Shown: in pieces, positions 60,096 through 64,000 of the stretch
Numbering within the stretch: position 1 is the first letter of the stretch
How the letters are laid out: each line of letters begins with the position of its first letter
Origin: Flavobacteriales bacterium
GTDB taxonomy: Bacteria; Bacteroidota; Bacteroidia; UBA10329
Direction of reading: 5' to 3'
DNA: 64,000 bases
NCBI GenBank assembly: GCA_021739695.1
Contig: JAIPBM010000026.1
Span: forward strand, 1-64,000
The notes under the pieces: model-generated
Seen by the model: only the letters and a program-made list of their open reading frames with translations
What the model was told of the DNA's origin: nothing
Databases searched by the model: none
Made by a program: the position numbers and the translations under genes

Positions 60096-60530
60096 CTAAA
60101 AATGTAAAATAATTTCATTTTTAAGTTCAAAATAGCCCCAATATTTTTTCAATGAATTTTCAATTTTTCGGCAAAAATCCCGTCTAAACCTTGTTTTTAG
60201 CGGCCGCGCCAAGGGCTGAAAACGCCCAAAAACGGCAATTTTTTGCGCTGCTAAAGAGCCATTTTTCGCGCTAACACCACTATTTTCAAGCCTTCTTTTT
60301 CGGTAGATTAACATGTCCAGCCATTTTTCATGCTTGCTTTTTCGGTAGATTAACATGTCCAGCCATTTTTCATGCATTCTTTTTCGGTGGATTAACATGT
60401 CCAGCCATTTTTTAAGCTTGCTTTTTCGGTAGATTAACATGTCCAGCCATTTTTTAAGCTTGCTTTTTCGGTAGATTAACATGCCCAGCCATTTTTTAAG
60501 CTTGCTTTTTGGCTGCGTAGCCTTAGGCAA
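60096..60530 (-). CDS. Doubtful 144-codon reading frame over a 42-bp tandem repeat
   Basis: The frame begins with a TTG codon and encodes five near-identical 14-residue blocks (KSKLKKWLDMLIYR and variants), followed by a basic tail. No start signal, homologous family or membrane segment is clear. Because the repeat period is a multiple of three, an open frame is expected by chance. It may be simply repeat DNA. Listed so that the stretch is not ignored. Confidence 0.2.
   Translation of the reverse strand: MPKATQPKSKLKKWLGMLIYRKSKLKKWLDMLIYRKSKLKKWLDMLIHRKRMHEKWLDMLIYRKSKHEKWLDMLIYRKRRLENSGVSAKNGSLAAQKIAVFGRFQPLARPLKTRFRRDFCRKIENSLKKYWGYFELKNEIILHF
60301..60510. repeat. Five tandem copies of a 42-bp unit
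   Basis: Units start at 60301, 60343, 60385, 60427 and 60469 with CGGTAGATTAACATGTCCAG. The unit ends vary between CATGCTTG, CATGCATT and TAAGCTTG. The copies are almost identical and have no spacers, so this is a minisatellite rather than a CRISPR array. Confidence 0.95.
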
Positions 60531-60540
60531 GGCCTTGCTC

Positions 60541-61090
60541 CCTAGGCTTCGACTGCGCTCAGCCTACCCCCGTACCCTGAGCGAAGTCGAAGGAGCGTAC
60601 CCTGAGCGAAGTCGAAGGGAACGGAAGAACAGAGACCCCTCCTGACCTCCCCCAAGGGGAGGGAATTAGGGAACAGAAGAACAGATGAACAGAAAAACAG
60701 AGGAACAGAAGAACAGAAGAACAGAAGAACAGAAGAACGGAAGAACGGAAGAACAGAGTAATTGAAAAAGTGCTAATACCTAACTCCTAATACCTAACTC
60801 CTAGCACCTAACTCCTAATACCTCTAACCTCTAACCTCTAACCTCTAACCTCTAAGCTCTAAGCTCAATCAGCCCTTTGCGCCAACTTCGCGTCTTTGCG
60901 GTTAAGGAAAAGAGACCCCTCCTGACCTCCCCCAAGGGGAGGGAATTCGGGAAAGGAAGAACAGAAAACGCCTTTGCGCCCTTCGCGCTAACTCTGCGTC
61001 TTTGCGGTTAAGGGAACGGAAGAACAGAGGAATTGAAAAAGTGCTAATCGCTAACTCCTAATACCTAATACCTAAAACCTAGCAAGAAAC
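60541..61090. repeat. Repeat island between the minisatellite and the CRISPR locus
   Basis: The segment has no plausible gene. It contains an inverted pair CTTCGACTGCGCTCAG (60547-60562) and CTGAGCGAAGTCGAAG (60577-60592), the latter repeated at 60602-60617; a 37-bp block present twice (60632-60668 and 60911-60947); 9-nt microsatellite of GAACAGAAG type (60671-60757); a CTAACTCC/CCTCTAAC microsatellite (60772-60866); and two copies of a GCGTCTTTGCGGTTAAGG block near 60889 and 60996. The order looks like a sink for small dispersed repeats. Confidence 0.85.
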
Positions 61091-61143
61091 TCTTGCATAA
61101 ATGGATGAAGGGTGTTAAGTTAGCATTGTGAAAGCAATGGCCA

Positions 61144-61226
61144 AAAAGCAAAAACGACCCGTGAGGGCCGCTTCGAATGTTTTCACAACGGAATAATCCT
61201 TTAGTAAGATGAATGGAAACGTATTG
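61144..61226 (-). ncRNA. tracrRNA-like module 2 (distal)
   Basis: On the minus strand the core AAAGGATTATTCCGTTGTGA is followed by AAACATTCGAAGC and the hairpin GGCCCTCACGGGTC (TCAC loop, 61156-61169), then GTTTTTGCTTTTT. The GGATTATTCC part can form a small nexus-like stem. Upstream, the candidate anti-repeat reads CATTCATCTTACT, unlike module 1. A weak box TACGTTTC lies at about 61217-61224, so this module may have its own start or be read through from module 1. Confidence 0.65.
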
Positions 61227-61227
61227 G

Positions 61228-61297
61228 AAAAAGAAACCCCGAGTTGCCCCAGGGTAAAAGTATTCACTACGGAATAATCCTTATTGTGATTTGCTAA
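61228..61297 (-). ncRNA. tracrRNA-like module 1 (cas9-proximal)
   Basis: On the minus strand the module reads from about 61297: a candidate anti-repeat GCAAATCACAAT, the core AAGGATTATTCCGTAGTGAA, and the terminator hairpin CCCTGGGGCAACTCGGGG (61237-61254; 7-bp stem with two G-U pairs and a GCAA loop) running into TTTCTTTTT. The core plus hairpin plus U-tract arrangement, divergent from cas9, is what a type II tracrRNA looks like. The matching CRISPR repeat should begin with something like ATTGTGATTTGC; the array is outside the window. Confidence 0.72.
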
Positions 61298-61300
61298 TGC

Positions 61301-61308
61301 CAAATGTA
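61301..61308 (-). promoter_or_regulatory. Predicted promoter of the tracrRNA
   Basis: On the minus strand TACATTTG (perfect TAnnTTTG) lies just upstream of module 1. A TTG occurs 16 nt before it (61325-61327), slightly closer than the usual spacing. The start of transcription would be near 61295, and the promoter overlaps the cas9 5' leader. Confidence 0.55.
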
Positions 61309-61330
61309 ACAGATTTAAAACAAACAAGAC

Positions 61331-64000
61331 ATGAAAAATATTCTTGGATTTGATATTGGCACCAACTCAATCGGTTGGGCTCTGATAAATTATGATTTCG
61401 ATGTCCAGCAAGGTGAGATAGTTGATGTGGGGAGTAGAATTATTCCGACAGATACCACATTATTGGGTGCTTTCGAGACCGGCCAATCAGCATCAAAGAA
61501 TGAAAACAGAAGGATGGCGCGGGGTGCAAGACGGTTGCGCCAACGCTACAAACTAAGGAGGTCAAGGCTTGTGGATGTGATGAAACTACTAGGCTGGCTG
61601 CCCCATAGCTATGTGGTTGGCAATGGTATTCCTGTTTCAAATGAGCGACTGGAACAATTGAGAATCTATTTTGGGGTTAGCGGAGAAGAAGGGACTGACA
61701 TACCGCATGATTGGCTGGTCTATTTTCTGAAAGAGAGAGGGTTAATGGAAATGCTTGCCCCTGCTGAGCTTGCACGAGTGCTATATCATTTCAATCAACG
61801 AAGAGGATTCAAAAGCAACAGAAAGACTGATGCTGTGAACCCAATGGAAGATGAAGCGGATATTCCTAACCGTACAAGGGAAAAAACTGTTGAGCGAGTT
61901 TCCATTAAAGATGTGGTCGAAGGTGATAGACAAAAAGGCAAGACCATTTACAACGTGCTCTTAAGTGATGGACGTGAGGGTACTATCCTGAGAGCCACAC
62001 GCCCTGATTGGATAGGACAGGAATTGGAACTTGAGATCACCCGTATAGTCAATAAGGCAAAAGAGACCCGCTATGAATTCAGGCAACTTGCGAATAATGA
62101 CAAGGATAAGTGGGCCAAGCAAAAACTTGCACGAGAATTGGCCATAGCCAATTTTAAAAGGGATGTAATGCCCAAAGGACATGTCAGCTCATATTACCTC
62201 TATGAGCTGAAAAAGGACCCGACATTCATCATTAAAGATGTGCCTATTGATAGAGCCCACTATGAAAATGAGATACGGGCAATTCTGCATAAGCAGGTGG
62301 AACTGTATGAGAAGGCAGGCAATCCGCTGATGACCACAGATACGCTGAGCAAGATCGCAACCGAACTTTATCCTGGAGAAAATCCGACAAGGAGGGATGA
62401 GCTCCAAAAGAAAGACCTTGTGTATATTCTACTGGATGACATCATCTATTATCAACGTCCGTTGAGGTCGCAGAAAGGCAGCATTGCTGTCTGTCGCTAT
62501 GCCAAGAAGAATTTCCGTTACAGGGATGATAAGGGATTGACACATCAGGCCTACTTTAAGTCAGCACCGATAAGTAGCCCCATATTTCAAGAATTCAGAA
62601 TATGGCAAACGATCAACAATCTACGGATTGTGGAGCGGGAGTATCGCGACCCTAAAGGAAGACTGAAAACTGACCGAGACATCAGCCATGATGCATTCAC
62701 CACCGAAGCGAAAGAGAAACTATTCGACCTATTCAACGGAAAGGAGAAGGTAAATCAGAAACAGATACTCGATACTGTGAGCAAGGCAACCGGAAAAAAA
62801 TATCCGGTCGATCAATATCTGGTCAGTAATTTCAGAAGCAGAGAAGACAGTGAAATGCCAGGCAACGAAACGAAAGTTGTCATCACCCGCGCATTGAAGC
62901 GCGTTGAATTAGATGATAAAACCATAGATGCCATCCTAGCGGATAAGGACAAGTATGATCGTCTGTGGCACATTCTCTATTCCCTTGAAGACCCGAAACA
63001 TGTTTCCAAAGCCTTGGTCACGCAAGTGGGCATAGATACGGACAAAGCAGAGAAACTGTCCCGTACAAAGGCATTCAAGAGTGGTTATGGCTCTCTAAGC
63101 AGCAAGGCCATGAAACAACTACTTCCGCTGATGAAATGCGGTAAGTATTGGAAATGGGAAGCTATAGATAAGGCAAGCAGAAGTCGATTGGAGAAGATTT
63201 TCACTGGTGAGTTCGATGAAGGAATAAGCGACCATGTTCGAGAACTATTCTCTGCATCAAACATTTCAGACAAGAATGCATGTCAGGGTTTTGCTGTCTC
63301 CATGGCCGCCTATTCCGTATTCGGTATTCACAGCGAAAAAGAACGCGGGGTTTACGACCGTCCAGAAGACATCCAAAGAATGAAACCATTCGAACTTCGC
63401 AACCCTATCGTTGAACAAGTTGTCAATGAGACCCTGATGATCGTCAGGGATGTTTGGAAAAAGCATGGCGTACGCCCGTTTCAGATACATCTTGAGCTGT
63501 CTCGCGACCTGAAGAAGAATGCGAAAGAGCGTGAAGCCATATCGAAGCGTATCAGTGAAGATGAAAAGACCAACAGACGCATTGCAGCCATTCTCAATGA
63601 ACTGCGTCTCGGAAATCCTCAGAGCATCAGCGATATTGAACGCATGAAACTGACGGAGCGGCAATCAGTCGAACAGGCTGAACAAAAGTCAAAGGACAAA
63701 TATTTTGAGGCCATCAAATTCAAAAAGCCAGCCGAACCTACCAAAGCTGAGATAGAAAAATATAAGCTGTGGGCATCCCAGAATTTCCGTTCACCGTACA
63801 GTGGTAAAACGATCTCATTGAGCGGGCTTTTCAATAAACGAGAGTATGACATAGACCACATTATTCCAAAGTCGCGTTGGTTCGATGACTCACTGGACAA
63901 TAAGGTCGTGGTTGAAACCTCTCTCAATAAGGAGAAAGGACAGATGACCGCCATGGAATACATGCTTTCCAATAAGAACCTGACGGGGAAAAGGATGAGG
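61331..64000 (+). CDS. cas9: Cas9 nuclease, N-terminal 890 codons, cut by the window edge
   Basis: The frame is open from ATG 61331 to the window end with no stop codon. RuvC-I is LGFDIGTNSIGWAL with the catalytic D8. The Arg-rich bridge helix follows (RRMARGARRLRQRYKLRRSR, about residues 62-81), then NQRRGFKSNRK (about 155-165), a motif I associate with large Bacteroidota Cas9 proteins. RuvC-II is QIHLELSRD with catalytic E722. The HNH domain has YDIDHIIPKSRWFDD (D842, H843), DNKV (N857) and SLNKEKG. RuvC-III lies beyond the edge. The HNH position implies a protein of about 1,300-1,500 aa, most likely subtype II-C by taxon, though the subtype cannot be fixed without cas1, cas2 and flanking genes. 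The leader overlaps the tracrRNA promoter on the other strand. Confidence 0.96.
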   Translation, partial: MKNILGFDIGTNSIGWALINYDFDVQQGEIVDVGSRIIPTDTTLLGAFETGQSASKNENRRMARGARRLRQRYKLRRSRLVDVMKLLGWLPHSYVVGNGIPVSNERLEQLRIYFGVSGEEGTDIPHDWLVYFLKERGLMEMLAPAELARVLYHFNQRRGFKSNRKTDAVNPMEDEADIPNRTREKTVERVSIKDVVEGDRQKGKTIYNVLLSDGREGTILRATRPDWIGQELELEITRIVNKAKETRYEFRQLANNDKDKWAKQKLARELAIANFKRDVMPKGHVSSYYLYELKKDPTFIIKDVPIDRAHYENEIRAILHKQVELYEKAGNPLMTTDTLSKIATELYPGENPTRRDELQKKDLVYILLDDIIYYQRPLRSQKGSIAVCRYAKKNFRYRDDKGLTHQAYFKSAPISSPIFQEFRIWQTINNLRIVEREYRDPKGRLKTDRDISHDAFTTEAKEKLFDLFNGKEKVNQKQILDTVSKATGKKYPVDQYLVSNFRSREDSEMPGNETKVVITRALKRVELDDKTIDAILADKDKYDRLWHILYSLEDPKHVSKALVTQVGIDTDKAEKLSRTKAFKSGYGSLSSKAMKQLLPLMKCGKYWKWEAIDKASRSRLEKIFTGEFDEGISDHVRELFSASNISDKNACQGFAVSMAAYSVFGIHSEKERGVYDRPEDIQRMKPFELRNPIVEQVVNETLMIVRDVWKKHGVRPFQIHLELSRDLKKNAKEREAISKRISEDEKTNRRIAAILNELRLGNPQSISDIERMKLTERQSVEQAEQKSKDKYFEAIKFKKPAEPTKAEIEKYKLWASQNFRSPYSGKTISLSGLFNKREYDIDHIIPKSRWFDDSLDNKVVVETSLNKEKGQMTAMEYMLSNKNLTGKRMR

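What the first reader, a model, noticed from the sequence alone, without database searches (positions are those of the whole stretch)
61140..61310. Two tandem tracrRNA modules with different anti-repeats beside cas9
Directly upstream of and divergent from cas9, the minus strand carries the core AAGGATTATTCCGT twice, 88-89 nt apart. Each copy is followed by a different hairpin and its own U-tract (CCCTGGGGCAACTCGGGG with a GCAA loop, and GGCCCTCACGGGTC with a TCAC loop). The sequences 5' of each core, where the anti-repeat should be, are unrelated: GCAAATCACAAT versus CATTCATCTTACT. Type II loci usually encode one tracrRNA. Two modules could serve two repeat types, provide a backup, or let one copy act in regulation, as the long tracrRNA form does for S. 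pyogenes cas9. The core pattern is seen in sequence; dual function is inference.
Basis: partly seen in the sequence, partly recalled or inferred. Interest (0 to 1): 0.85.

Follow-up and report, generated by a model that had tools for sequence, protein, structure and literature searches.

The report
Leftover tracrRNA from a swapped cas9
Next to this bacterium's cas9 lie two tracrRNA copies: one fits the present Cas9 and CRISPR array, and the other, missing its crRNA-pairing end, is most likely a leftover from an older cas9 that was swapped out in place, so it marks how CRISPR effectors are exchanged.

Summary
Two tracrRNA bodies lie on the minus strand beside cas9 (cores 61188-61201 and 61269-61282). 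They are 81 nt apart, not 88-89. A covariance model of canonical Bacteroidota tracrRNAs finds only these two in the genome (68.7 and 42.8 bits).

Only the cas9-proximal module M1 works on paper: it has a Bacteroidota-type promoter box and an anti-repeat forming 13 bp with the repeat of the 62-repeat array. The distal module M2 has an intact nexus and tail but no anti-repeat; no second repeat or Cas9 was found. 'Two repeat types' is not supported.

Comparison of about 95 loci explains M2. A same-genus genome (G004) has Cas1 84%, Cas2 91%, near-identical repeats and the same M2 tail, but a Cas9 only 30% identical, with its own Cas9-type proximal tracrRNA plus M2 with an intact anti-repeat. Cas9 and Cas1 trees conflict. 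Best reading: cas9 with its tracrRNA was replaced in situ while array, cas1-cas2 and the old distal tracrRNA stayed; M2 is the scar. Anti-repeat-less canonical bodies recur in four other loci, all of one Cas9 clade. Residual function of M2 is not excluded; there are no RNA data.

The parts
61226..61312 (-). M1: cas9-proximal tracrRNA module (promoter box TACATTTG, anti-repeat AGCAAATCACAAT, nexus core 61269-61282, GTAGTGAATAC linker, hairpin CCCTGGGGCAACTCGGGG and U-tract)
   Evidence: 13-bp duplex with the array repeat; full TAnnTTTG box; covariance hit 61235-61282, 42.8 bits; non-canonical type like its Cas9 clade
61150..61201 (-). M2: distal tracrRNA body without anti-repeat (nexus core 61188-61201, GTTGTGAAAACATTCGAAGCGG, hairpin CCC-TCAC-GGG and U-tract)
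   Evidence: covariance hit 68.7 bits; no pairing with repeat; tail shared only with the distal module of G004
61202..61227 (-). Junction between M1's terminator and M2's nexus (CCAATACGTTTCCATTCATCTTACTA), where an anti-repeat would be expected
   Evidence: no repeat in the genome matches it; duplex test negative
61331..64000 (+). cas9 (continues to C26:65983; 1550 aa, RuvC and HNH motifs present)
   Evidence: TIGR01865, E 3.8e-132; motifs; only Cas9 in the genome. cas1 follows on C26 and cas2 plus the 62-repeat array lie at the start of contig C33, outside the window

Best explanation
M1 (cas9-proximal) is the working tracrRNA of the present Cas9: its transcript starts near the TAnnTTTG box, its anti-repeat pairs with the repeat of the 62-repeat array, and it ends at its own terminator (parts shown on sequence; expression inferred). 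M2 (distal) is what remains of the tracrRNA of a former cas9. In the ancestor the locus read old tracrRNA - old cas9 - cas1 - cas2 - array. A foreign cas9 arriving with its own tracrRNA replaced the old cas9 in place, and the breakpoint cut the old tracrRNA at its anti-repeat/nexus border. cas1, cas2, the array and the outer part of the old tracrRNA stayed. The swap could work at once because the first ~13 nt of the repeat and the matching anti-repeat are shared by most of these Bacteroidota systems (inference). M2 cannot bind crRNA and probably has no role now.
For: Window versus same-genus G004: Cas1 84%, Cas2 91%, repeats nearly identical, M2 nexus and tail identical, but Cas9 30%. The matching parts flank the non-matching cas9+M1 on both sides. 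Window versus L056: Cas9 49%, Cas1 48%. Trees: window+G004 are Cas1 sisters (100) but rejected for Cas9 (p-AU 1e-5); window+L056 rejected for Cas1 (p 0.0007). M1 has the type of its Cas9 clade, M2 the canonical type; G004's proximal module likewise has the nexus type of its own Cas9 clade. G013 repeats the pattern. Canonical bodies lacking the anti-repeat are in 5 of 18 non-canonical loci and 0 of 71 canonical ones. M1 has a full promoter box, M2 and the other orphan bodies do not.
Against: No genome of the genus with the supposed old cas9 was found. Window and G004 are not syntenic outside the locus. M2's body is perfect, as if still under constraint. L091 has a truncated second body of the same type, so truncated copies can also arise by duplication. 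The array is assigned across a contig gap in cas1.
Confidence: 0.75

Rival explanations
1. M2 is a functional anti-repeat-less RNA, for example a regulatory Cas9 cofactor (a tracr-L-like natural single guide on an M1-M2 read-through transcript) or a Cas9 decoy.
For: M2's nexus and tail are intact (68.7 bits) while the 5' side is gone; the same holds in L064. Such bodies recur in one Cas9 clade. A weak 6-bp cis pairing UAGUGA/UUACUA appears in the predicted fold.
Against: No promoter box for M2; no second sequence match that could act as a guide; nexus broken in L061 and L062 and lost in G013, so no shared functional core.
Confidence: 0.1
2. Plain tandem duplication of one tracrRNA within this lineage, after which the distal copy lost its anti-repeat.
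For: 26 nt at 88% identity between the modules; both have TAC-TTT-like boxes; L091 shows that same-type truncated duplicates exist.
Against: M1 and M2 are of different types; M2 is closest to G004's distal module (identical nexus and tail) and M1 to tracrRNAs of its Cas9 clade. Does not explain the Cas9/Cas1 conflict.
Confidence: 0.1
3. One reading: two tracrRNAs with different anti-repeats serve two repeat types or back each other up.
For: In G004 both modules pair with its repeat (-21.0 and -24.1 kcal/mol), so redundancy is possible there.
Against: In this genome M2 pairs with no known repeat; no other type II cas1 or Cas9.
Confidence: 0.03

Closest known systems
Type II-C tracrRNA of Bacteroidota (anti-repeat, nexus, terminator; long-repeat systems, compare clade X in PMC7606464)
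   Same: M1 has all parts; M2 has nexus, tail and terminator of the canonical form
   Different: M2 lacks the anti-repeat; two modules of different types in tandem
In-situ exchange of effector modules with fixed adaptation module and array (PMC6452270)
   Same: cas1, cas2 and repeat follow one history, cas9 another
   Different: Here the exchange includes the tracrRNA and leaves a piece of the former tracrRNA as a visible scar; within type II-C
tracr-L, the long tracrRNA form acting as natural single guide in type II-A (see PMC11417352)
   Same: A tracrRNA-derived RNA beside cas9 that is not dedicated to crRNA
   Different: No guide match, no promoter box, no conserved cis stem; type II-C

Membership tests
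Type II tracrRNA (M1) | Anti-repeat complementary to the array repeat | tested here: met
   13 contiguous bp, -18.1 kcal/mol, 10 of 500 shuffles as good
Type II tracrRNA (M1) | Nexus, terminator and position beside cas9 | tested here: met
   42.8 bits; fold
Type II tracrRNA (M1) | Transcribed and co-processed with pre-crRNA | not testable with these tools
   Promoter box only; no RNA data
Type II tracrRNA (M2) | Anti-repeat complementary to the array repeat | tested here: not met
   -5.1 kcal/mol; 463 of 500 shuffles as good or better
Type II tracrRNA (M2) | Nexus and terminator | tested here: met
   68.7 bits
In-situ effector exchange | Adaptation genes and effector with conflicting histories | tested here: met
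   Identities, Cas1 and Cas9 trees with AU tests
In-situ effector exchange | A relative that still has the pre-exchange effector at this locus | tested here: not met
   None in the genus: of 9 genomes only this one, G004 and G008 have a type II Cas1, and G008's locus is unrelated
tracr-L / natural single guide | Cis repeat-like:anti-repeat-like stem before the nexus | tested here: inconclusive
   Only a weak 6-bp pairing in the window; not shared by other orphans
tracr-L / natural single guide | Short guide matching the cas9 promoter | tested here: not met
   The only repeated stretch of 10 nt or more in 61100-61420 is the nexus itself

The most novel reading that the evidence does not exclude
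In one Cas9 clade of Bacteroidota an old tracrRNA body without anti-repeat is kept in use after cas9 replacement, as a Cas9-binding RNA that takes no crRNA and tunes Cas9 activity or cas9 expression.
Probability: 0.1. Interest if true: 0.75.

Novelty: new variant of a known kind. Interest (0 to 1): 0.5.

Why it matters
Module exchange between CRISPR effectors and adaptation genes is usually inferred from conflicting trees. Here a physical scar, the outer part of the old tracrRNA, sits where the swap happened and tells which kind of cas9 was there before. It suggests that cas9 and its tracrRNA travel as one unit that plugs into a resident array because the first bases of the repeat are shared across the phylum. 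It also warns that automatic tracrRNA prediction or guide design for new Cas9s can pick the wrong, anti-repeat-less copy, which in this locus scores higher than the right one.

Tried and rejected
Exact double-core pattern (gap 46-106 nt) in 84,980 species: no hit, because relatives vary in one nexus or have lost it; this negative was misleading until the cas9 upstream regions were read directly. Rfam: no match. Second repeat type for M2: no hit. Phages: no match to the region; plasmids: only tracrRNA fragments of about 40 nt. Point-mutational decay of M2's anti-repeat: an alignment to G004 is possible with an 11-nt gap, but the sharp border seen in all orphan bodies fits a cut better. tracr-L reading: no support. 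Searches for tandem, second or duplicated natural tracrRNAs in papers found nothing relevant; key papers on tracrRNA evolution were not held, so an earlier description there cannot be excluded.

Full report
Observation. The core AAGGATTATTCCGT occurs twice on the minus strand, at 61188-61201 and 61269-61282, 81 nt apart; identity extends over 26 nt at 88%. cas9 starts at 61331 on the plus strand and encodes 1550 aa (TIGR01865). Rfam finds nothing, but a covariance model of 30 canonical Bacteroidota tracrRNA bodies finds exactly these two places in the genome: M2 (distal, 61150-61201) at 68.7 bits and M1 (proximal, 61235-61282) at 42.8 bits.

Locus. The contig ends inside cas1 at 66480. The rest of cas1, cas2 and the array lie at the start of contig C33; the join is inferred from the split cas1. 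The array has 62 repeats of 46 nt; in the orientation that pairs with the anti-repeat the repeat reads GTTGTGATTTGCTTTCAATCATTGATCTTTGACTTCTTGAACCACT. There is one Cas9 in the genome and one cas1 gene, split over the two contigs.

Which module can work. The repeat forms 13 contiguous bp with the sequence before M1's nexus (-18.1 kcal/mol; 10 of 500 shuffles as good). With M2's upstream sequence it gives -5.1, and 463 of 500 shuffles do as well or better. No second repeat matching M2's upstream sequence was found. A full TAnnTTTG box, a promoter element of this phylum (my knowledge), precedes M1 and 51 of 81 tracrRNAs in related loci, against 3 of 405 background windows; M2 has 5 of 6 positions, which about a quarter of background windows reach.

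Relatives. Cas9 relatives came from 148 related genomes, from GTDB species (80 loci) and from IMG/VR (3 loci). After removal of duplicates, 71 loci have a primary tracrRNA of canonical type (...CCGTTGTGAAAACAT...) and 18 a non-canonical one (GTAGTGA and similar). M1 is non-canonical; M2 is canonical. Canonical bodies without anti-repeat also occur in G013 (L039/L140), L061, L062 and L064. So 5 of 18 non-canonical loci have one and 0 of 71 canonical loci (Fisher p 2e-4; loci are not independent, and the scan was tuned to canonical tails). The border is sharp but differs: before the nexus in the window and L064, inside the nexus in L061 and L062, after it in G013. In Niastella (L091) a truncated second body is of the same type as the primary one, an inverted duplicate 2.9 kb away, so not every truncated copy marks a change of type.

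The same-genus genome G004 decides between duplication and replacement. It has two modules in the same order, both with anti-repeats. Its Cas1 is 84%, Cas2 91% and repeat almost identical to the window's, and its distal module shares M2's nexus and tail without a difference up to the terminator hairpin, including CATTCGAAGCGG, seen in no other locus held. Yet its Cas9 (1767 aa) is only 30% identical. Its proximal module has nexus AAGATTTTATCG, the type of its own Cas9 clade (G015, Cas9 44%: AAGGTTTTACCG, single tracrRNA). The window's Cas9 is closest to L056 (49%), whose Cas1 is only 48%. Trees agree: window and G004 are sisters in Cas1 (support 100); window with L056 is rejected for Cas1 (p-AU 0.0007); window with G004 is rejected for Cas9 (p-AU 1e-5); the non-canonical loci of the subset form one branch in Cas9 (support 93, not starred) and are rejected as a group in Cas1 (p-AU 2e-38). 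Because matching parts lie on both sides of the non-matching cas9+M1, it was the middle piece that was exchanged. G013 repeats the pattern: Cas9 59% to L064, Cas1 71% and Cas2 84% to L089, orphan tail motif shared only with L081 and L092, L081 being one of its nearest Cas1 relatives.

Interpretation. cas9 with its tracrRNA was replaced in situ; the adaptation genes, the array and the outer part of the former tracrRNA stayed. Shown: the conflict of histories, the types of the modules, the pairing, the missing anti-repeat. Inferred: the order of events, a single cut, lack of present function. In-situ effector exchange with a fixed adaptation module and array is known (PMC6452270), and Cas9 works only with dual-RNAs of close relatives (PMC3936727), which explains why cas9 and tracrRNA would move together. 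tracrRNA clusters generally follow Cas9 clades (PMC7606464). A tracrRNA scar of this kind was not found described in the papers searched, but important papers were not held.

Limits. M2's body is perfect while its 5' side is gone. A recent swap with a sharp cut explains this, but continued use is not excluded. No relative with the supposed old cas9 was found, and window and G004 flanks beyond the locus are not syntenic. No expression data exist.

Noticed in passing
61101-61125 and G000:C25:64315-64339 (L004 4316-4340): A 25-bp stretch just 3' of M2 recurs exactly once elsewhere in the genome, directly upstream of a gene that reads like a type I restriction-modification methylase. Both sites border the same kinds of low-complexity repeats.
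   Followed up: partly
60096-60530 (-): ORF made of 42-bp tandem repeats (MLIYRKSKLKKWLD-like units); contig C25 has a similar 21-bp repeat array beside the methylase gene.
   Followed up: no
60560-61060: Low-complexity 'gaacagaagaacag' and 'ctctaacctctaac' repeats next to the CRISPR locus, also found beside the C25 methylase gene.
   Followed up: no
61126-61136 (-): TGCTTTCACAA, an 11-nt anti-repeat-like stretch 3' of M2's terminator, complementary to M2's own tail (10 of 11); may be chance.
   Followed up: no
L091 696-754 (-) and 3647-3705 (+): Niastella yeongjuensis has an inverted, truncated duplicate of its own tracrRNA body 2.9 kb away, 61 nt at 95%.
   Followed up: partly
L061, L062, L063 upstream of cas9: The primary tracrRNA is turned round and points toward cas9, unlike most relatives.
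   Followed up: no
L152 (G008, same genus): A third, unrelated type II locus in the genus (Cas9 1445 aa, repeat GTTGTGGTTTGATTGATAAGCGATCTTTGAAATACT).
   Followed up: no
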